From the IMG/VR virus record IMGVR_UViG_3300042867_000488, positions 1 through 25,545 of that record: DNA of 25,545 bases; one strand, 5' to 3'. Shown in pieces: positions 1,158 through 24,686 of this stretch. The stretch is from a virus. The position numbers were made by a program, and so were the translations under genes. Position 1 is the stretch's first letter. Each line of letters starts with the position of its first letter. Below the pieces are notes generated by a model, which saw only the letters and a list, made by a program, of their open reading frames with translations, had not been told where the DNA came from and made no database searches.

Positions 1158-1355
1158 ATGGCGGACATAAGTAAGTGCATAGGGACAGATTGTCCCCACA
1201 GAGAAAAGTGCTACCGATTTACAGCACCTGCTGATGAGTATCAAGCCTATTTTACGGAGCCGCCAATTAAGGCAGACGGAACCTGCGACTTTTTCTGGGG
1301 AAAGACTCAGACAGATATTCTCTCTCAACTCAAAGAAATTTTGGGGGATAAGTAA
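1158..1355 (+). CDS. Small Cys-containing phage protein (65 aa)
   Basis: ATG at 1158 immediately follows the TAA at 1155-1157. The product starts MADISKCIGTDCPHREKCYRF and has four cysteines (7, 12, 18, 43) spaced C-x4-C-x5-C-x24-C, which could bind zinc or another metal; that is inference from spacing. The pattern 'SKC-xx-DCP-R-CYRFTA' recurs in phage genomes as a short conserved hypothetical protein. It is the last gene before the separately transcribed basic protein, whose -33 element lies inside its last codons. Confidence 0.75.
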   Translation: MADISKCIGTDCPHREKCYRFTAPADEYQAYFTEPPIKADGTCDFFWGKTQTDILSQLKEILGDK

Positions 1356-1370
1356 GACTTTGTATATTTG
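1340..1370 (+). promoter_or_regulatory. Bacteroidota-type promoter for the basic protein gene
   Basis: TTTG at 1340-1343 and TATATTTG at 1363-1370 are separated by 19 bp, an exact match to the Bacteroidota -33/-7 consensus (TTTG...TAnnTTTG). The predicted start of transcription is near 1377, giving a leader of about 23 nt before the ATG at 1400. With the terminator at 1727-1751 this makes a one-gene transcript. Confidence 0.75.
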
Positions 1371-7891: not shown

Positions 7892-7923
7892 TTTTGATTT
7901 TGCTGACTTTTATAGTACATTTG
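7892..7923 (+). promoter_or_regulatory. Bacteroidota-type promoter of the recombination operon
   Basis: TTTTG (7892-7896) and TACATTTG (7916-7923) are spaced by exactly 19 bp, a perfect -33/-7 match. Transcription would start near 7930, giving a leader of about 38 nt before the TTG start at 7968. It lies between the early-cluster terminator and the operon with recT and the exonuclease. The rest of 7762-7967 shows no gene. Confidence 0.75.
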
Positions 7924-13408: not shown

Positions 13409-13441
13409 CAAATATACAAAAACAAATTCTGTAATTGCAAA
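13409..13441 (-). promoter_or_regulatory. Bacteroidota-type promoter of the HNH-like gene
   Basis: On the - strand TTTG (13441-13438) and TATATTTG (13416-13409) are spaced by 21 bp, a full match to both boxes though at the long end of spacing. Transcription would start near 13402, leaving a leader of about 83 nt that contains the GNRA hairpin. Confidence 0.6.
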
Positions 13442-13452
13442 TATTAATAAAT

Positions 13453-15705
13453 TTAATTTTCTTTGATTACATCTGTGCCAAGCATAAATTCTCCAAACAT
13501 ATACTTTTGAGCTTGTTTAGTGCAATCGGTTTTTGATAAGAATAGATTAATAACGTCTGAATCTACCAAGTCTGGGTGTACCCACCAGTCTTCATAAGGA
13601 CAGTTGTCATTAGGAGATATATTACTTCCTACTAATACATACCCTTTTTCTGTTAAAAACTCTCTAGACTTTTCTCTGTATAGCCTAGTTAGGTCTGCAT
13701 AGTAGTCATGTTCAAATGTAATTACTGCAAATCTATGCTTGTCAAATGGTATCTTGGTTAAGATGTCATAGGTTACACTAGGTGGCTCACAGTCTACTTG
13801 TAGGTAATCTATATCCTTAGGATACTGATGATGTGTTAGGAAGTCAGCGTAGTCTATAGTTGTAGCGTCATGAAGGATTATAGGATTTTTTCTGCTGTTT
13901 TTAAATTTTGTAACCTCATGCTCTAATATTTCTATAGACACCCCCTTCCATTCAAACTGAGTCTCTAGCAATGCTGAATTACTACCAAAGAAAGGATCTG
14001 CTGCACCAATTTCTAAATAGGTGCCATGCTTCTTCCCCTTTAACATTGATAACACAAAAAGGTCTTGGTATGTTTGTGAATAGTTTCTCTTAACACCCTC
14101 CAACCCTTCAAAATGATACATCATCGAAGAGTAGTTTAATGCGGTGTAAGGTAAAAAAGGGTCAGACGATGAGCCTAAAGAAGTTATATTCTTTTGGAGC
14201 AAGACCTTAAATCCTTCGTCCATTAGGTGACTATAGTTTTCTGCTAATTCAAATAGCAATACTCTTGCTTGTTTGCCGTCTCCTATCCACCATTGTGAGA
14301 CAGCTAATTGAAACAAGTATAAGTAATAATCATCATCTTTATTATTCTTTTTGGTAAGAGCTAATGTGGCATAAAGGTTAGACTCTTGCCAGTTCTGAAT
14401 TGATTCGAAGTATTGGCTAAGTTTTAAAAATCCATATGCAACATCAGGCATATAGGTTACTACGTCCATTAGTATACTCTTCTCTGCAACTTTTCTATTA
14501 CCTTCTTTAGCAATACACTCCGCTATTCTTAACAAGCATTGGTATGCATTAACAGGTTGACTATTTAAATGAAATAACTCTGCACTTCTTAGATAAAAAG
14601 ACAGGGCCGATGACCAAAGTTCTTGGTTAAAATAGAAGTTGGCTAGTGCATAATTGTTCTCTGCTAGTTCAGGAGATTCAGCAAACCTTTCTAATGCTTT
14701 AGGGGAGTTTTTACTGCTATGTTTTTTTACAGCATTTGACAAACCTACTAAACTCTCAAAGTATTCACAAGGCATCTTAACTATAAATGCAGACGAGTCA
14801 TGAAAGCCCATAGTGATAAGAAGGTTATCCTCTTGAACAGCCATACCACATGAGAATTCTATATTAGCACCAAAGATTTTAAAAGCGTCTGATGTAGCAA
14901 CTATATTCCAATCCTTATCCCACACGATAAATCTGTGATAGTATTGGGCATCTTTTTTATTTTGCTCATTTTTCCAAAGGTCTACCTCGTGGGTTAGTGC
15001 TATCCTGTAATTTTTGTATGGTATAACTTGGCTGCCCCCACGAATATCTCTAGGAAGTTCTAATGTTTCTTTTGATATAAATACTGTTTCAGAGGACTTG
15101 TTTTCTAGGTTTACTTTTACCACCTCTGTAGGATTACTCCACTTAACAAAGTGATATGGCATATCCAATACAGGCATCCAGTTCTTCTCACAATAAGATT
15201 GAGCAGGTGGTTCTATTCTAGTTCTATTCACCTCTTGCCCATTAACAATCTCAGACATCTCCATCCTGCCCACACCATTAGTTGTAGTATCCCTCCTAAC
15301 CCCACATAAAAATAGTTTGTTATCCCACTTAACTATACGGGCATCTTCTAATCCTACAAACTCCCATAATGGCTTTACATCTAACTTTGAAGTGTTTACT
15401 TTTTCAAACGACTCTAGAGTAAGAGTATTAGAATCAAGTTTACATAAGTAGTTAGTTGTAGTGAGAGTTATATCATTTTCAGGATTTAGGTATGCCAATG
15501 GACTGCAATGAACAAGAAACTTCTGTGAAAATTCAGAGTGGTATAACATATACTGCACCTTTCTGATATTCAATAGAAGATCTTCGCCATCAATGAATAT
15601 TGAGGGGTTAGTATTTGCTGTGCCGCCTATACAGGTAGCCGGTAAATTTAAGAAATGAAAACTGCCCCCATGTTGGAGCAAATCATGGGATAAATAATTT
15701 TGCAT
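13453..15705 (-). CDS. Three-part protein: GH130-like propeller, TPR-like helices, FkbM-like methyltransferase
   Basis: The 750-aa product has three parts. Residues about 15-320 resemble the five-bladed propeller of GH130 mannoside phosphorylases and related enzymes: FVGLEDARIVKWDNKLFLCG (117-136), EKNWMPV (173-179), RGGSQVIPYKNYRIALTHE (222-240) and YYHRFIVWD...FSCGMAV (255-290). Residues about 335-510 are helical repeats of TPR type (NNYALANFYFNQELWSSALS). Residues about 540-710 match the FkbM methyltransferase fold: YSQTYQDLFVL, the SAM-binding YLEIGAADPFFGSNSALLE (563-581), IDYLQVDCEPP (632-642) and FAVITFEHDYYADLTRLY. It probably acts on sugars of the phage particle or host surface, but the substrate is unknown. 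It has its own candidate promoter and lies downstream of the fibre genes. Confidence 0.8.
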   Translation of the reverse strand: MQNYLSHDLLQHGGSFHFLNLPATCIGGTANTNPSIFIDGEDLLLNIRKVQYMLYHSEFSQKFLVHCSPLAYLNPENDITLTTTNYLCKLDSNTLTLESFEKVNTSKLDVKPLWEFVGLEDARIVKWDNKLFLCGVRRDTTTNGVGRMEMSEIVNGQEVNRTRIEPPAQSYCEKNWMPVLDMPYHFVKWSNPTEVVKVNLENKSSETVFISKETLELPRDIRGGSQVIPYKNYRIALTHEVDLWKNEQNKKDAQYYHRFIVWDKDWNIVATSDAFKIFGANIEFSCGMAVQEDNLLITMGFHDSSAFIVKMPCEYFESLVGLSNAVKKHSSKNSPKALERFAESPELAENNYALANFYFNQELWSSALSFYLRSAELFHLNSQPVNAYQCLLRIAECIAKEGNRKVAEKSILMDVVTYMPDVAYGFLKLSQYFESIQNWQESNLYATLALTKKNNKDDDYYLYLFQLAVSQWWIGDGKQARVLLFELAENYSHLMDEGFKVLLQKNITSLGSSSDPFLPYTALNYSSMMYHFEGLEGVKRNYSQTYQDLFVLSMLKGKKHGTYLEIGAADPFFGSNSALLETQFEWKGVSIEILEHEVTKFKNSRKNPIILHDATTIDYADFLTHHQYPKDIDYLQVDCEPPSVTYDILTKIPFDKHRFAVITFEHDYYADLTRLYREKSREFLTEKGYVLVGSNISPNDNCPYEDWWVHPDLVDSDVINLFLSKTDCTKQAQKYMFGEFMLGTDVIKEN

Positions 15706-15722
15706 AAATATTGATTATACAA

Positions 15723-15754
15723 CAAATGTAAACAAAATTTTCTTTAATCTTAAA
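15723..15754 (-). promoter_or_regulatory. Candidate promoter for the GH130/TPR/FkbM gene
   Basis: On the - strand TACATTTG (15730-15723) is an exact -7 box, and TTTA (15754-15751) stands 20 bp upstream in place of TTTG. Transcription would start near 15716, about 11 nt before the ATG at 15705. With the hairpin just upstream, it suggests that this gene is transcribed apart from the fibre operon. Confidence 0.5.
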
Positions 15755-15768
15755 ATGTAAAAACTATT

Positions 15769-15787
15769 GGTTGTTTATTTTACAACC
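15769..15787 (-). terminator. Probable terminator of the fibre operon, overlapping a stop codon
   Basis: On the - strand GGTTGT pairs with ACAACC around AAAATAA, followed by AATAGTTTTTACATTTT. The TAA stop of the 87-aa gene lies at the edge of the stem and loop. The 6-bp stem is short and the T-tract interrupted, so termination may be partial. Confidence 0.5.
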
Positions 15788-16043
15788 CCAAGAGTGTTTT
15801 TTCCTCAGGTGATAGCTTACTAAGAGCATCTTCTTTCTTTATCTCATCAACGTCTAGGTTCTGTGTTAACTCAAAATACTCCACTTCAGGCATAAAACTT
15901 TGAATATTTTTTGCTTCAATAAGATATGCTAAATACTTATTTGCATCTTCAAATGAATCAAAGTATTTAGTGAGGTTTTGAACAGTAACCGTTAATTGGT
16001 CCCCGTCCACAATAGTTTTTTTTGTTAGTGATACTTTATACAT
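15780..16043 (-). CDS. Small virion-region protein (87 aa)
   Basis: ATG at 16043 lies 1 nt after the stop of the 674-aa gene. The product has an N-terminal beta part (MYKVSLTKKTIVDGDQLTVT), a helix (SFEDANKYLAYLIEAKNIQS) and an acidic helical tail ending in LSKLSPEEKTLLGL. The 'L-x-PEEKxxLGL' ending is common in short phage tail-region proteins. It could be a chaperone or connector for the fibre proteins, by position only. Confidence 0.7.
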   Translation of the reverse strand: MYKVSLTKKTIVDGDQLTVTVQNLTKYFDSFEDANKYLAYLIEAKNIQSFMPEVEYFELTQNLDVDEIKKEDALSKLSPEEKTLLGL

Positions 16044-18075: not shown

Positions 18076-18600
18076 TTAACTTATTCTATTTCTTACTGCT
18101 AATTGCCACGTTGTTGATCTAGGTGGATTAATTTGATCTTCTAAAAATCTAGTTGTTGTTCCTATACCTAATAAAATGTTTACCGAGCCTACTGTAGTTA
18201 CTGTATCTAAGTATCCCCCATAACTTTTAGACCTAGAGTAAAGATTATTTTCAAGATAATTCGGTCTTTGTAATGACTTTAATATTTGAGATAAAGCAAC
18301 CGACATATCATTGATTTGTTGAGATATAAACTGCTCATCATAGTAAAAGATTTGCAACCTATCTGTATTAGCAAAAGAGGCTGTGTTTGTATCGTACGTT
18401 AAAGTAAATACATTGCCTGATAAAGTAGCACCTTTTGTAGCGTCACTAAACTGATAAATAATTGTATTGTTAGTAGTATCTGTTATCAATAACAAACCTT
18501 CTAGTTTTACATTACCCGAAGGTAAATTTATAGTGACGGTTTTAGCCACCTTATTAAAAGTGTAACTCCCGTAGTCTAGTCCTATTACTATTTTTGCCAT
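18076..18600 (-). CDS. Tail-region structural protein (174 aa)
   Basis: The protein starts MAKIVIGLDYGSYTFNKVAK and has an N-terminal beta-sandwich-like domain (about 1-95) ending in NTDRLQIFYYDEQF, a pattern typical of small phage virion proteins. A helix (SQQINDMSVALSQILKSL) links it to a C-terminal part that ends TTWQLAVRNRIS. Such proteins occur beside fibre and baseplate genes in environmental phages. It is 4 nt downstream of the collagen-like gene and 6 nt upstream of the 674-aa gene. It may be an adaptor between fibre and tail; that is inference. Confidence 0.7.
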   Translation of the reverse strand: MAKIVIGLDYGSYTFNKVAKTVTINLPSGNVKLEGLLLITDTTNNTIIYQFSDATKGATLSGNVFTLTYDTNTASFANTDRLQIFYYDEQFISQQINDMSVALSQILKSLQRPNYLENNLYSRSKSYGGYLDTVTTVGSVNILLGIGTTTRFLEDQINPPRSTTWQLAVRNRIS

Positions 18601-18604
18601 AATT

Positions 18605-21600
18605 TTATCCTAAAGATATTGCATATGCTATTGCATCACCTGCTGAGATACCACCCCCTCCTCCACCCGAATATTGGGGGATGTTAAGGACAGAACCAAC
18701 CAAAGTAGATGCTCCGCTTGTGCCTAATGTTGTCAAAGTTAGTGAAATTGTTCCTTGAATTCCTTGAATTCCTTGAATTCCTTGTGTCCCAGTTCCTGTA
18801 AATCCTTGTGTTCCAGTTGTACCTTGTGACCCTTGAGCCCCATTAGAGCCTGTGTTTCCTGTGATTCCTTGAATACCTTGAGACCCATTTGTACCATTTG
18901 AGCCTGTAGTACCTTGACTACCGACTGCCCCCTGGCTTCCTGTAGACCCTGTAGAGCCTTGACTTCCAGTTGACCCGGTAGTTCCTTGGGACCCCGTTGT
19001 TCCCGTTGCACCTTGACTTCCTGTAGTACCTGTTGCCCCTTGTGAACCTGTAATACCTTGACTCCCAATAGTTCCTGTAGCCCCCTGACTTCCATTTAAA
19101 CCTGTAGTTCCCTGAGAACCTGTTACACCAGTAGACCCTTGACTCCCTACGGCTCCTTGAGAACCTGTACTTCCTGTAGCACCCTGTGACCCATTAGTGC
19201 CAGTAATACCCTGTGTTCCATTAGCACCCTGAGACCCTGTATTTCCTATCAACCCTTGTGTTCCCTGCACCCCCTGACTACCCGTTGTGCCCTGAGGCCC
19301 AGTCGGATATGAGGTAATAATCAACAACATTTGATGATTATTAGGAAAAGAGTATGTTGATGTAACTAAAGTAACACCATAAGTCCAATATGTTGTATTA
19401 TCAGTCTTACTAGTAATTTGCCATTGCTGATAATTTGTGTGGGAGGACTGATCTTGTAAAGTTATAATAGTTCCAATTCCAATATTTGATAAAAACAAAT
19501 CTAAGTTATCTCCATTTTGATCTATTTCACTTACACTAATAGAAGTTGCAGACGCTTGTGTTGCATTGTTCCATATAATGTGACCCGATGCTGGGTCCCC
19601 AGTTGTGATAGTAGTTTTTGCTTGGTAGTTAAAAAACGAATTAGAATTTCCTGCAATTCCTTGACTTCCAATAGCCCCTTGTGCTCCAGTTAAGCCTAAA
19701 GTTCCTTGTATACCTTGAGTTCCTTGACTTCCGTTTATACCAGAAGTACCTTGAGTACCTGTACTACCAACAGCCCCTTGAGAACCAGTATTTCCAGTAG
19801 CTCCTTGCGAACCTGTTGCGCCAATAGTCCCTTGTGAACCAACTGACCCTTGGACACCTATGGCCCCTGTTGTTCCCTGACTACCTGCTGTTCCCGTGCT
19901 TCCTTGGGAACCAGTGTTACCAAGAATACCCTGCACACCTTGAATACCTTGTGAGCCGGTGTTTCCAGTAGACCCTGTGCTTCCTTGTGAGCCTGTTGTT
20001 CCTATAGAACCTTGGCTACCTACAATACCTTGTATACCCTGACTTCCCGTTGCTCCATTATTACCAGTTAATCCTTGAACTCCTTGAGTTCCCTGAGATC
20101 CATTTAACCCTGCCGTACCTTGTGTACCTATGGCACCCTGACTTCCTGTAGAGCCTGTAACACCTGTTGTTCCTTGGCTACCTGTAACTCCTTGGGAACC
20201 ATTAGTTCCTGAAATACCCTGCGTACCCTGAGAGCCATTAGCCCCAGTAGTGCCTGTGGTTCCTTGGGACCCGATAATACCTTGACTTCCAGTGGCACCT
20301 GTTGTGCCTTGCAAGCCTGTTGCACCAACACTACCCTGCGAACCAACCGACCCTTGAACTCCAGTTGAACCAACACTTCCCTGTGTTCCTGTAGCCCCAG
20401 TTACACCCTGAGAACCAATTGCTCCTTGTAGTCCAAGCGTGCCTTGTATTCCTTGAACTCCTGTAATCCCTTGGCTTCCCGTAGAGCCTGTGCTACCTTG
20501 GCTACCTGTATTACCTACTGTACCTTGGAGACCTGTTGTCCCCTGTGTACCTTGAACGCCTAATAAACCTTGTATGCCTTGGGTTCCTTGGAGTCCTTGT
20601 AAACCATTTAATCCCTGTACCCCTAAAAATCCTTGTACACCTTGGGTGCCTTGAGTTCCAACTAATCCTTGAACACCTTGTGCACCAACAATTCCTTGAG
20701 TGCCTTGTGGTCCATTAGCACCTTGTACACCTTGAGGACCTGTTACATTACCAGCATCAATCCATGAAGTTCCACTCCATACCCATAAATGTCCTGTATC
20801 TGTGGTAATATAACCATCACCAATTGACCCACCATACGAACTTGGCCATCCTGGCAAAGAAGTCGATGTAGACACACTACCTAATATTGTTACTGAACTA
20901 CCGGAAACTCCTTGTAATCCTACTAATCCTTGGATACCCTGAGTACCTTGCAACCCTGTTATCCCTTGGATACCTTGCAAACCAGTTAAACCTTGTATAC
21001 CTACAGCACCTTGAGAGCCGATTGCACCTTGTGAACCAAGAATACCCTGTGTCCCTATAATGCCTTGAGTACCTTGGCTACCAGTTTGACCTTGAATTCC
21101 CGTGGCACCTTGTGTTCCATTAATGCCTGCTGTACCCTGCGTACCTACCGCACCTTGTGACCCAGTATTACCTGTGGACCCTTGGATACCCGTGTTTCCT
21201 AATACACCTTGCACGCCTTGTGTACCCTGACTTCCCGTAGAGCCTGTAGCTCCCTGCGAACCTAAGATACCTTGACTTCCTTGGGAACCTGTATTTCCTA
21301 TAGAGCCTTGGGTACCTACTAATCCTTGAGAGCCAGTTATACCTTGGATGCCTTGAGAACCATTTAAGCCAGTAGTTCCTTGAGAACCTATGGCACCTTG
21401 TGAACCCGTAGCTCCGGTTATCCCTTGACTACCTATCGCCCCTTGCGAGCCAGTTGCTCCCGTACTTCCCTGTACTCCTGTAGACCCTGTAGATCCTGTG
21501 GCCCCTTGAGACCCTGTAATGCCTTGGACACCAATTGCACCCTGAGAACCTATAGTTCCCTGCACTCCCTGAGTTCCTTGAGTACCGGCTACACCTGCTG

Positions 21601-22666
21601 TTCCAGTTGCACCTTGTGCCCCAGTTAATCCCGTTGCACCTTGACTTCCAATACTTCCTTGGATTCCTGTGCTTCCCTGACTCCCTAGGGAGCCTGTAAC
21701 TCCTTGAGTTCCCTGACTTCCAATAGCACCTGTTGTCCCTTGAGATCCAACAGCACCTTGACTACCAGTTAAGCCAACAGTTCCTTGGCTTCCAGTAGTT
21801 CCAACACTTCCTTGCGAACCTACCGAACCTTGCGAACCCGTAATTCCTTGCACTCCTGTTGCACCTTGAGAACCAATAGATCCCTGAGTACCGATAACCC
21901 CTTGAGATCCTGTAATTCCTTGGGAACCTACTGTTCCTTGAGAACCTATAATGCCTTGAGTTCCTGTTAAACCTTGGACACCTGTACTTCCTTGCGTTCC
22001 AGCAACCCCTTGCAAACCAGTGCTACCTTGCACCCCTTGGACACCCTGAGTTCCTTGAGAACCTCCCACACCTAAAGATTGATAGGCTGTTCCATCCCAT
22101 ACATACGGCTCAGGAACACTCATGTCAATATAAATAACATTAGCGGCTCCTGTTGCTGGGAATAATGCAAAACTTGCATACTGCTCTACGCCAGTGGATA
22201 CAAGAAGTTGGTAAGAGGTGCCGTCCCAATAGTAGGCACTATTATCAGCCTCATCAATATATATTACTGACTGCTGACCTGTCGCAGGAAAAGATGCGAA
22301 GTTAGGATATACAGCAACGACACCTCCTATAAAGGCAGGTTTAGGGCAACAACCTTGAATAACGCCTGAGATTATAAATGCGTATATATCGTAGAGACGA
22401 TCTATATACGCCTCACTTGTGTCAGAGGGGTCTATTCCTGCTGAGTATATCTTATTGCTTGTTGATCCATAAACAGCAATTATATTAAACACGTTGAACG
22501 AGAGAGTCTTTACGCTGCTTGAGAATACAATTGTCTTGGCTAGATTGCTTTCGAAGCCTATAGAAACGGAACTTGTAATACTAAAAGAGTCTACAATGTC
22601 TGACCCGTTATAAAACTGGATCATCCCATTAGATAGACGCTGTATTTTCGTTACATTTACATTCAT
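18605..22666 (-). CDS. Giant collagen-like tail fibre protein (1353 aa)
   Basis: The N-terminal 155 residues form an anchor domain nearly duplicated in the protein encoded at 24162-24686. Two similar hairpin units follow: FPATGQQSVIYIDEADNSAY (126-145) and FPATGAANVIYIDMSVPEPY (169-188), each ending in WDGTxYQ. Then come long Gly-X-Y tracts (about 202-587, 643-1005 and 1125-1305) built of GSQ, GTQ, GVQ, GTT and GAT triplets, which form collagen-like triple helices in phage fibres. Two non-collagen domains interrupt them, near 588-642 (with GYITTDTGHLWVWSGTSW) and near 1005-1125. The end has a Gly6 linker and ISAGDAIAYAISLG. Proline is nearly absent from the triplets; Thr and Gln take the Y position. 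Confidence 0.93.
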   Translation of the reverse strand: MNVNVTKIQRLSNGMIQFYNGSDIVDSFSITSSVSIGFESNLAKTIVFSSSVKTLSFNVFNIIAVYGSTSNKIYSAGIDPSDTSEAYIDRLYDIYAFIISGVIQGCCPKPAFIGGVVAVYPNFASFPATGQQSVIYIDEADNSAYYWDGTSYQLLVSTGVEQYASFALFPATGAANVIYIDMSVPEPYVWDGTAYQSLGVGGSQGTQGVQGVQGSTGLQGVAGTQGSTGVQGLTGTQGIIGSQGTVGSQGITGSQGVIGTQGSIGSQGATGVQGITGSQGSVGSQGSVGTTGSQGTVGLTGSQGAVGSQGTTGAIGSQGTQGVTGSLGSQGSTGIQGSIGSQGATGLTGAQGATGTAGVAGTQGTQGVQGTIGSQGAIGVQGITGSQGATGSTGSTGVQGSTGATGSQGAIGSQGITGATGSQGAIGSQGTTGLNGSQGIQGITGSQGLVGTQGSIGNTGSQGSQGILGSQGATGSTGSQGTQGVQGVLGNTGIQGSTGNTGSQGAVGTQGTAGINGTQGATGIQGQTGSQGTQGIIGTQGILGSQGAIGSQGAVGIQGLTGLQGIQGITGLQGTQGIQGLVGLQGVSGSSVTILGSVSTSTSLPGWPSSYGGSIGDGYITTDTGHLWVWSGTSWIDAGNVTGPQGVQGANGPQGTQGIVGAQGVQGLVGTQGTQGVQGFLGVQGLNGLQGLQGTQGIQGLLGVQGTQGTTGLQGTVGNTGSQGSTGSTGSQGITGVQGIQGTLGLQGAIGSQGVTGATGTQGSVGSTGVQGSVGSQGSVGATGLQGTTGATGSQGIIGSQGTTGTTGANGSQGTQGISGTNGSQGVTGSQGTTGVTGSTGSQGAIGTQGTAGLNGSQGTQGVQGLTGNNGATGSQGIQGIVGSQGSIGTTGSQGSTGSTGNTGSQGIQGVQGILGNTGSQGSTGTAGSQGTTGAIGVQGSVGSQGTIGATGSQGATGNTGSQGAVGSTGTQGTSGINGSQGTQGIQGTLGLTGAQGAIGSQGIAGNSNSFFNYQAKTTITTGDPASGHIIWNNATQASATSISVSEIDQNGDNLDLFLSNIGIGTIITLQDQSSHTNYQQWQITSKTDNTTYWTYGVTLVTSTYSFPNNHQMLLIITSYPTGPQGTTGSQGVQGTQGLIGNTGSQGANGTQGITGTNGSQGATGSTGSQGAVGSQGSTGVTGSQGTTGLNGSQGATGTIGSQGITGSQGATGTTGSQGATGTTGSQGTTGSTGSQGSTGSTGSQGAVGSQGTTGSNGTNGSQGIQGITGNTGSNGAQGSQGTTGTQGFTGTGTQGIQGIQGIQGTISLTLTTLGTSGASTLVGSVLNIPQYSGGGGGGISAGDAIAYAISLG
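18740..22065. repeat. DNA-level repeat tracts encoding Gly-X-Y triplets
   Basis: On the + strand, units such as CCTTGACTTCC, CCTTGAGAACC and CCTGTAGTTCC recur throughout the collagen gene, broken only by the two non-collagen domains (about 20740-20905 and 19290-19650). At 18751-18782 TTCCTTGAA recurs four times almost perfectly. Such tracts are substrates for slippage and recombination, so fibre length may vary between isolates. Confidence 0.85.
22201..22666 (-). repeat. Fibre-anchor duplication, copy in the collagen gene
   Basis: This segment encodes residues 1-155 of the collagen-like fibre and is closely related at both DNA and protein level to 24221-24686. Conserved blocks include VDSFSITSSVSIG, KTLSFNVFNII, KIYSAGIDPSDTSE and FASFPATGQQSVIYIDEA. 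See the partner copy. Confidence 0.9.
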
Positions 22667-24161: not shown

Positions 24162-24686
24162 TTAGTAATTGTAAAATAAATATAATGAACTTGCTGGGTT
24201 GGTTATGTCAACTGTGGATGTTAAAAGCTGATATGATGAGCCGTCCCAATAGTAGGCTTGGTTCATCGCCTCGTCTATATATATTACAGACTGCTGTCCT
24301 GTTGCTGGAAAAGATGCAAAGTTAGGATACGAGGCAACGACCCCTCCAACAAAAATAGTTTCAGGGCAGCAACCTTGGATGACATCTGAAATTAAAAATC
24401 CGTATATGTCGTAAAGTCTGTTTACATATACCTCACTTGTGTCAGAAGGATCTATTCCTGCTGAATATATTTTACTACTTGCCTCCCCGTAAAGAGCTAT
24501 TATATTAAATACATTGAATGAGAGGGTCTTTACGCTGTTTGAAAATATAATTGTCTTGGCTACATTATTTTCAGATCCAATAGATACAGAGCTTGTAATG
24601 CTGAAAGAATCTACAACTTCAAGTCCATTGTAAAACTGAACTATTCCGTTGGTTAGACGTTCTATTTTCGTTACATTTATATTCAT
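24162..24686 (-). CDS. Stand-alone fibre-anchor protein (174 aa)
   Basis: Residues 1-155 are a near copy of the N-terminus of the 1353-aa collagen-like fibre, including the CC pair in VIQGCCPE and the unit FPATGQQSVIYIDEAMNQAY-YWDGSSYQLL. Instead of a collagen tract, it ends after 19 more residues (TSTVDITNPASSLYLFYNY). The aromatic end looks like a deliberate C-terminus rather than a frameshift scar. The protein could occupy the same docking site as the fibre, as a short cap or co-subunit. ATG at 24686 overlaps the upstream stop (TAATG). Confidence 0.85.
   Translation of the reverse strand: MNINVTKIERLTNGIVQFYNGLEVVDSFSITSSVSIGSENNVAKTIIFSNSVKTLSFNVFNIIALYGEASSKIYSAGIDPSDTSEVYVNRLYDIYGFLISDVIQGCCPETIFVGGVVASYPNFASFPATGQQSVIYIDEAMNQAYYWDGSSYQLLTSTVDITNPASSLYLFYNY
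24221..24686 (-). repeat. Fibre-anchor duplication, stand-alone copy
   Basis: This is the partner of 22201-22666, in the same orientation about 2 kb apart. Matching DNA blocks include GGAAAAGATGC(A/G)AAGTTAGGATA near 24308 and 22287. Recombination between the copies would delete the three intervening genes and fuse the anchors. Confidence 0.9.

What the first reader, a model, noticed from the sequence alone, without database searches (positions are those of the whole stretch)
13453..15705. GH130-like propeller + TPR-like + FkbM-like methyltransferase in one phage protein beside a collagen fibre
One 750-residue frame joins a sugar-enzyme-type propeller, helical repeats and an FkbM-type SAM-binding domain (YLEIGAADPFFGSNSALLE). 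FkbM proteins O-methylate sugars or other small substrates and GH130 members act on mannosides. The combination next to a Thr-rich Gly-X-Y fibre suggests a phage system that builds or caps a glycan on its own fibre, or alters host surface sugars. Domain identity is from family knowledge; the fibre-glycan link is inference.
Basis: partly seen in the sequence, partly recalled or inferred. Interest (0 to 1): 0.68.

Follow-up and report, generated by a model that had tools for sequence, protein, structure and literature searches.

The report
Phage enzyme paired with collagen fibres
Many environmental phages carry a three-part enzyme (a mannose-transfer-type propeller, a protein-binding repeat and a methyltransferase) that is gained and lost together with a collagen-like virion fibre, which suggests that these phages put a methylated sugar on their own fibres.

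Summary
The three-domain protein is real, but it lies on the minus strand (15705 to 13453). A confident model (pLDDT 91) shows a GH130/GT108-type five-bladed propeller (residues 6-324, Z 20-24), a TPR-like helical domain and a class-I methyltransferase. The residues that align with the GH130 active site (N33, R48, E120-D121, R123) are invariant in 104 diverse clusters, so the propeller is probably an active enzyme. The family is abundant in viral contigs (at least 597 relatives) and nearly absent from cellular genomes. In other phages the domains occur as two or three adjacent genes, or gain GT25, WavE, GT17, radical-SAM/SPASM or extra methyltransferase domains. A Gly-X-Y gene lies within 5 kb upstream in 13/15 fused-gene clusters and never within 5 kb downstream (0/52 in the whole lineage). 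In one syntenic lineage, 8/8 loci with the module and 0/8 without it have the Gly-X-Y fibre. A close relative of the window phage lacks both. Partner fibres are lysine-free, nearly proline-free and Thr/Ser/Gln-rich. Best explanation: glycosylation and methyl-capping of the phage's own fibre. Activity, donor, acceptor and virion modification are untested. A second lineage lies beside non-collagen tail fibres; some homologues lie beside replication genes.

The parts
13453..15705 (-). Three-domain enzyme gene (750 aa)
   Evidence: Open frame with 48-54% identical full-length relatives; AF2 pLDDT 91.3
14734..15690 (-). GH130/GT108-type five-bladed propeller, residues 6-324
   Evidence: VIA Z 20-24 to GH130, about 18 to Leishmania GT108; N33, R48, E120, D121, R123 align with GH130 invariant residues and are invariant in 104 clusters
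14176..14700 (-). TPR-like helical repeat domain, residues 336-510
   Evidence: Helical hairpins in the model; Foldseek matches to TPR proteins incl. OGT and SPINDLY; TPR Pfam hits in relatives
13498..14067 (-). FkbM-like class-I methyltransferase domain, residues about 547-736
   Evidence: Separate AF2 model of 516-750, pLDDT 90.4; class-I MTase folds Z 11.6-12.7; PF05050 below cut-off here, hit in 8/19 members
15780..16043 (-). 87-aa gene upstream of the module; kept in relatives that lack the module
   Evidence: Synteny with L320-L322
16045..18069 (-). 674-aa gene, kept at about 82% nt identity in relatives without module and collagen
18076..18600 (-). 174-aa virion structural / tail-fibre-like protein
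   Evidence: phrog_5838 E 2.5e-9, phrog_13980 E 0.001
18605..22666 (-). Collagen-like fibre protein, 1353 aa, 313 Gly-X-Y triplets, Ser/Thr at X, Gln/Thr at Y, about 1% proline at X; proposed substrate
   Evidence: Pfam Collagen 3.6e-139; composition; C-terminal tail homologous to a 170-aa non-collagen gene in relatives
13461..15774 (-). Segment absent from close relatives, where about 161 bp with a 51-codon ORF stand in its place
   Evidence: blastn breakpoints: identity resumes at 13461 (95.5%) and 15774 (81.9%)

Best explanation
The gene encodes an intracellular fibre-modifying enzyme. The TPR-like domain holds the nascent fibre chain, as TPRs hold the peptide in O-GlcNAc transferase. The GH130/GT108-type propeller transfers a mannose-type sugar, from a sugar phosphate or a GDP-sugar, directly onto fibre residues (most plausibly Thr/Ser in the Gly-X-Y repeats) or onto a first sugar placed there by another enzyme. 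The FkbM-type domain then O-methylates the product as a cap. The glycan would stabilise a proline-poor triple helix, shield the fibre, or tune receptor contact. Shown here: domain folds, conservation of the acid and substrate-binding residues, modular swaps with other glycan- or peptide-modifying domains, near-restriction to phages, and co-gain/co-loss with the Gly-X-Y fibre. Inferred: activity, donor, acceptor, order of steps and benefit.
For: Fold: GH130 phosphorylases Z 20-24, GT108 mannosyltransferases Z about 18. Active site: N33, R48, E120-D121, R123 align with GH130 invariants; spacing N33-R48 equals BT3780 N74-R89, and E141/D142 there are essential (PMC4599007); invariant in 104 clusters. 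Methyltransferase fold. TPR-enzyme matches to OGT/SPINDLY. Modularity: split genes; fusions with GT25, WavE, GT17, radical SAM/SPASM, DUF6445; 2OG-Fe(II) oxygenase next door in two loci. Fibre link: Gly-X-Y gene within 5 kb upstream in 13/15 fused clusters and 25/45 of lineage A, 0/52 downstream; 8/8 versus 0/8 in a syntenic lineage, Fisher 1.6e-4, at least 3-6 switches all concordant; relative of the window phage lacks both; annotated collagen-like gene beside it in cyanophage DSL-LC02; tail-fibre gene upstream in lineage B. Fibre chemistry: median Thr 27%, Ser 12%, Pro 1%, Lys 0% over 43 partners. Precedents: SgtA next to BclA3, mimivirus L230.
Against: No activity or virion data. The family falls below Pfam's cut-offs for GH130 and FkbM in this protein. 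Lineage B has no Gly-X-Y gene in reach (0/16), so collagen cannot be the general substrate. Some homologues lie beside DNA polymerase or ribonucleotide reductase. L206-L210 have the module near Gly-X-Y fibres with only about 2% Thr. Fibre and module may be co-inherited in one recombination block: identity jumps from 82% to 95.5% at the module's 3' edge.
Confidence: 0.6

Rival explanations
1. The enzyme remodels host glycans (surface polysaccharide or a metabolic mannoside) during infection, for superinfection exclusion, release or sugar supply; linkage to the fibre reflects a shared host-interaction region.
For: GH130 enzymes degrade or build beta-mannosides (PMC4599007); WavE and GT25 partners belong to families annotated for LPS synthesis; heptose kinase and cysteine dioxygenase families downstream in lineage B.
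Against: Nearly absent from bacterial genomes; co-variation with a fibre of unusual composition in several switches; TPR plus radical SAM/SPASM point to a protein substrate.
Confidence: 0.15
2. It modifies sugars on phage DNA or nucleotides (hypermodified DNA).
For: Some homologues beside DNA polymerase (L062, L069) or ribonucleotide reductase (L227, L229); S-SCSM2R copy follows nrdA/nrdB and a DNA ligase; phage glycosyltransferases often act on DNA (PMC12619734).
Against: Does not explain the upstream Gly-X-Y or tail-fibre genes, the TPR domain, or loss together with the collagen fibre.
Confidence: 0.1
3. It is a fibre-assembly chaperone or a virion protein in which the enzyme folds serve for binding only.
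For: Fibre-adjacent and co-varying like a dedicated chaperone; TPR domain.
Against: Residues aligned with GH130 acid and substrate-binding positions are invariant in 104 clusters; methyltransferase core motif retained; swaps with catalytic domains.
Confidence: 0.08
4. Module and fibre are only genetic hitch-hikers in one exchangeable cassette with unrelated functions.
For: Identity break at the module edge fits block exchange; in the syntenic lineage they are direct neighbours.
Against: Same pairing in unrelated backgrounds (window lineage, TerL/exonuclease lineage, cyanophage DSL-LC02) and in split and fused forms; three retained genes lie between them in the window lineage.
Confidence: 0.07

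Closest known systems
GH130 mannoside phosphorylases (e.g. Teth514_1788, BfMGP 4kmi, BT3780)
   Same: Five-bladed fold, Z 20-24; N, R, ED..R active-site residues of the N-terminal half align
   Different: 8-16% identity; no Pfam GH130 hit for this protein; phage family, fused to TPR and methyltransferase; second half of the active site not mapped residue by residue
GT108 Leishmania MPT mannosyltransferases
   Same: Same fold, Z about 18; synthetic use of the GH130 fold; acid Asp (D94N is listed as an inactive variant)
   Different: Donor use not tested; MPTs make mannogen, not protein glycans
O-GlcNAc transferase / SPINDLY
   Same: TPR plus transferase working on Ser/Thr of proteins; Foldseek matches across the TPR part
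   Different: Different catalytic fold; works-like comparison only
C. difficile SgtA with BclA3; B. anthracis BclA glycan with 2-O-methyl anthrose
   Same: Dedicated glycosyltransferase gene beside a Thr-rich collagen-like surface fibre; methylated terminal sugar
   Different: SgtA is an unrelated O-GlcNAc transferase; bacterial spores, not phage; fibres rich in Gly-Pro-Thr
Mimivirus L230
   Same: Virus-encoded multidomain enzyme that glycosylates viral collagen; GT25 domain also appears among relatives here
   Different: Acts on hydroxylysine; fibres here have no lysine; different folds
Mycobacteriophage virion glycosylation
   Same: Phage-encoded modification of its own virion proteins
   Different: Capsid and tail-tube C-termini, other enzymes (from the account in PMC12619734; original not read)

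Membership tests
GH130 (PF04041) | Five-bladed beta-propeller of the GH130 type | tested here: met
   Z 20-24, 261-279 residues aligned
GH130 (PF04041) | Conserved acid Asp in G-x-E-D-x-R plus Asn and Arg of the sugar subsites | tested here: met
   hhalign E 2.7e-5 aligns N33, R48, E120, D121, R123; invariant in 104 clusters
GH130 (PF04041) | Score above the curated Pfam cut-off | tested here: not met
   No hit for the window protein; 6 of 30 members, best E 1e-4
GH130 (PF04041) | Phosphate-binding basic residues (phosphorylase) versus Glu pair (hydrolase) | tested here: inconclusive
   R222, H239, H257 conserved, but the alignment covers residues 12-140 only
GT108 | Fold of MPT mannosyltransferases | tested here: met
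   Z 17.3-18.3
GT108 | GDP-Man-dependent mannosyl transfer | not testable with these tools
   Needs enzyme assay
FkbM methyltransferase (PF05050) | Class-I SAM-dependent methyltransferase fold | tested here: met
   Z 11.6-12.7; Foldseek E about 1e-7
FkbM methyltransferase (PF05050) | Score above the curated Pfam cut-off | tested here: not met
   17.1-19.1 bits against 22.7; 8 of 19 members match, best E 8e-5
FkbM methyltransferase (PF05050) | O-methylation of a sugar or other small substrate | not testable with these tools
   Needs enzyme assay
TPR proteins | Tandem antiparallel helical hairpins | tested here: met
   Helices 336-510; Foldseek TPR matches; Pfam TPR hits in relatives
Virus collagen-glycosylation systems (L230-like) | Encoded with collagen-like substrate in the same virus | tested here: met
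   (lineage A only)
Virus collagen-glycosylation systems (L230-like) | Glycosylation of (hydroxy)lysine | tested here: not met
   Partner fibres hold practically no lysine in the repeats

The most novel reading that the evidence does not exclude
A widespread phage-specific protein O-glycosylation system in which a GH130/GT108-fold enzyme, not known to act on proteins, glycosylates Thr/Ser (or hydroxylated residues) of collagen-like tail fibres, followed by methyl capping, with interchangeable extra modules (GT25, WavE, radical SAM, oxygenase) that diversify the fibre coat between phages.
Probability: 0.4. Interest if true: 0.85.

Novelty: new variant of a known kind. Interest (0 to 1): 0.68.

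Why it matters
Collagen-like phage fibres without proline or lysine raise the question of how the triple helix is held together. A phage enzyme that is gained and lost with such fibres offers a testable answer: sugar on Thr/Ser. It would add a large, mainly aquatic group to the few known virion-glycosylating phages, would be the first protein-directed use of the GH130/GT108 fold that I know of, and gives a marker for finding modified fibres in metagenomes.

Tried and rejected
Sequence-only searches for homologues of known structure found nothing real. Aligning the second half of the propeller to GH130 by profile failed, so the phosphate-site question stays open. A first adjacency count with greedy gene calls missed some propellers (L206-L210 looked module-free); it was replaced by an ORF-wide count and the gene was checked directly. 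The tail-sheath control (78 loci, module 0, Gly-X-Y 1) could not test association because neither feature was present often enough; it only shows that Gly-X-Y genes are rare there. Paper searches for phage FkbM with GH130, collagen-like tail glycosylation, cyanophage FkbM and GT108 with GH130 found no description of this system; the library is open-access only. DNA search found no known phage near the window. Bacterial copies are five short contigs in metagenome bins, read as phage DNA in bins and not as cellular genes.

Full report
WHAT IS THERE. The 750-aa frame at 13453-15705 exists, on the minus strand. The window is a 25.5-kb virus record. Only five of the searched bacterial and archaeal species genomes gave a hit, all on contigs of 3-18 kb in draft bins; a profile search of 396 genomes of one bacterial order found one, the same bin. 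The first of these scans is pattern-based and therefore a lower bound.

DOMAINS. AlphaFold2 on an alignment of the window's relatives (A1) gave mean pLDDT 91.3 and pTM 0.81. Foldseek's best PDB match is the GH130 1,2-beta-oligomannan phosphorylase Teth514_1788 (E 3e-9), with Leishmania MPT-4 and MPT-1 further down and, across the helical part, O-GlcNAc transferase and SPINDLY. VIA-align gives Z 20-24 to GH130 enzymes and 17-18 to the GT108 mannosyltransferases, over residues 6-324; one of the latter entries is titled an inactive D94N variant. The methyltransferase domain, modelled alone (pLDDT 90.4), matches class-I methyltransferases at Z up to 12.7. By sequence the window protein is below Pfam's cut-offs for both GH130 and FkbM, so I describe the domains as GH130/GT108-type and FkbM-like and do not file them as members.

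ACTIVE SITE. A profile comparison with GH130 proteins from bacterial genomes (E 2.7e-5) aligns N33-P34, R48 and G118-x-E120-D121-x-R123 with GH130's invariant NP, R and GxEDPR. In BT3780 the equivalent residues are Asn74, Arg89, Glu141 and Asp142; E141Q and D142N are inactive (PMC4599007), and the equivalent Asp104/Asp131 is the proposed acid in other members (PMC10619541). The 15-residue spacing between Asn and Arg is the same. These residues, and R137, R138, D139, E173, K174, N175, R222, H239, E283 and D303, are invariant or nearly so in 104 clusters at 90% identity. That argues for a working enzyme. Matching K174 to the beta-1,2 specificity Lys199 and D303 to the essential Asp363 is by eye only. 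Whether the conserved basic residues bind phosphate (phosphorylase), a nucleotide sugar, or neither was not resolved.

MODULARITY. In many relatives the propeller is a gene of its own (323-350 aa) followed by a TPR-methyltransferase gene (about 410 aa). Extra domains are fused to either part: radical SAM with SPASM, GT25, WavE, GT17, DUF6445, TylF-type and further FkbM methyltransferases (34 deliberately non-standard members, so these counts are not frequencies in the family). L018 and L046 have a 2OG-Fe(II) oxygenase just upstream. The DUF6445 region of L206 reads to me like a 2OG oxygenase (H-x-D, distal H), which I did not test. All these are glycan- or peptide-modifying types. In cyanophage DSL-LC02 the neighbours are annotated 'collagen-like protein', 'beta-mannosyltransferase' and two 'FkbM' genes.

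FIBRE LINK. Over 221 loci (104 clusters), lineage A has a Gly-X-Y gene (15 or more triplets) within 5 kb upstream in 25 of 45 clusters with enough upstream DNA, 13 of them within 200 bp, and in 0 of 52 within 5 kb downstream; for fused genes it is 13 of 15. Lineage B (344 + 410 aa genes) has none in 16, but 12 of these 16 have an ORF of more than 1,600 aa ending within 3 kb upstream; four such giant ORFs match PHROG tail-fibre families. My lineage split uses one motif, and a few B-like loci fell into A, which makes A's fractions conservative. Some homologues lie beside DNA polymerase or ribonucleotide reductase.

CO-GAIN AND CO-LOSS. Relatives of the window phage (L320-L322, the last a 66.7-kb contig) share 82% DNA identity from window position 18744 to 15774 and 95.5% from 13461 to 12700. 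Between these, the module is replaced by about 161 bp with a 51-codon ORF. In the collagen gene's place they have a 170-aa gene with the same C-terminal tail and no Gly-X-Y repeats. Neither module nor Pfam Collagen is found anywhere in the 66.7-kb record. A near-identical copy of the window (L319, 99.93%) keeps the module. Independently, loci gathered by an exonuclease gene next to TerL, without regard to the module, show the Gly-X-Y gene in 8 of 8 with the module and 0 of 8 without (Fisher 1.6e-4). The exonuclease tree needs 6 switches, 3 on well-supported branches, and all are concordant; three supported pairs are too few for significance on a sign test (p 0.25). Joint exchange of one block could explain each single switch. 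The jump in identity at the module's edge fits that, so the repeated pairing across backgrounds is the stronger argument.

FIBRE CHEMISTRY. The window's repeats have Ser/Thr (53%) at X and Gln/Thr (75%) at Y. Across 43 partner fibres the median share of X and Y positions is Thr 27%, Ser 12%, Gln 25%, Pro 1% and Lys 0%. Lysine-directed glycosylation as in animals or mimivirus (PMC9614988) is therefore ruled out for most. O-linked Thr glycosylation beside a dedicated transferase gene is known for C. difficile BclA3/SgtA (PMC7157674), and BclA of B. anthracis ends in a 2-O-methylated sugar (PMC6222408, abstract seen). From general knowledge, glycosylated Thr can stabilise collagen helices in a worm cuticle collagen; I did not find a held paper for this. 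A counter-example: L206-L210 carry the module near a Gly-X-Y fibre with about 2% Thr; there the methyltransferase gene has an added DUF6445 domain.

JUDGEMENT. The architecture, conserved active site, modular partners and repeated joint gain and loss with the fibre make fibre glycosylation with methyl capping the best explanation (0.6). Nothing here shows activity, donor, acceptor or a modified virion. Host-glycan remodelling, DNA modification, a chaperone role and hitch-hiking remain possible, in that order.

Noticed in passing
window 24162-24686 (-): 174-aa gene is an 80% identical copy of the first 158 residues of the collagen-like fibre protein, without the repeats: a duplicated fibre head.
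   Followed up: partly
window 13409-13441 (-), 1340-1370 (+), 7893-7923 (+) and two more: Five matches to a Bacteroidota-type promoter pattern TTTG-N17-22-TAnnTTTG against 1.1 expected; with RecT closest to Bacteroides phages this hints at a Bacteroidota host.
   Followed up: partly
BFVD hits of the model: Best predicted viral structures are pithovirus proteins; other giant-virus hits are multi-domain proteins named as glycosyltransferases. Which region of the model matches was not checked.
   Followed up: no
L206 6325-8268: DUF6445 region fused to the TPR-methyltransferase has an H-x-D...H pattern like 2OG-Fe(II) oxygenases; the nearby fibre is Thr-poor and Gln/Asn-rich.
   Followed up: partly
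L104 12312-13064: Gene after the lineage B module matches heptose kinase/adenylyltransferase and cysteine dioxygenase phage families.
   Followed up: no
L322 3640-3830: 51-codon ORF stands where the module is in the window phage.
   Followed up: no
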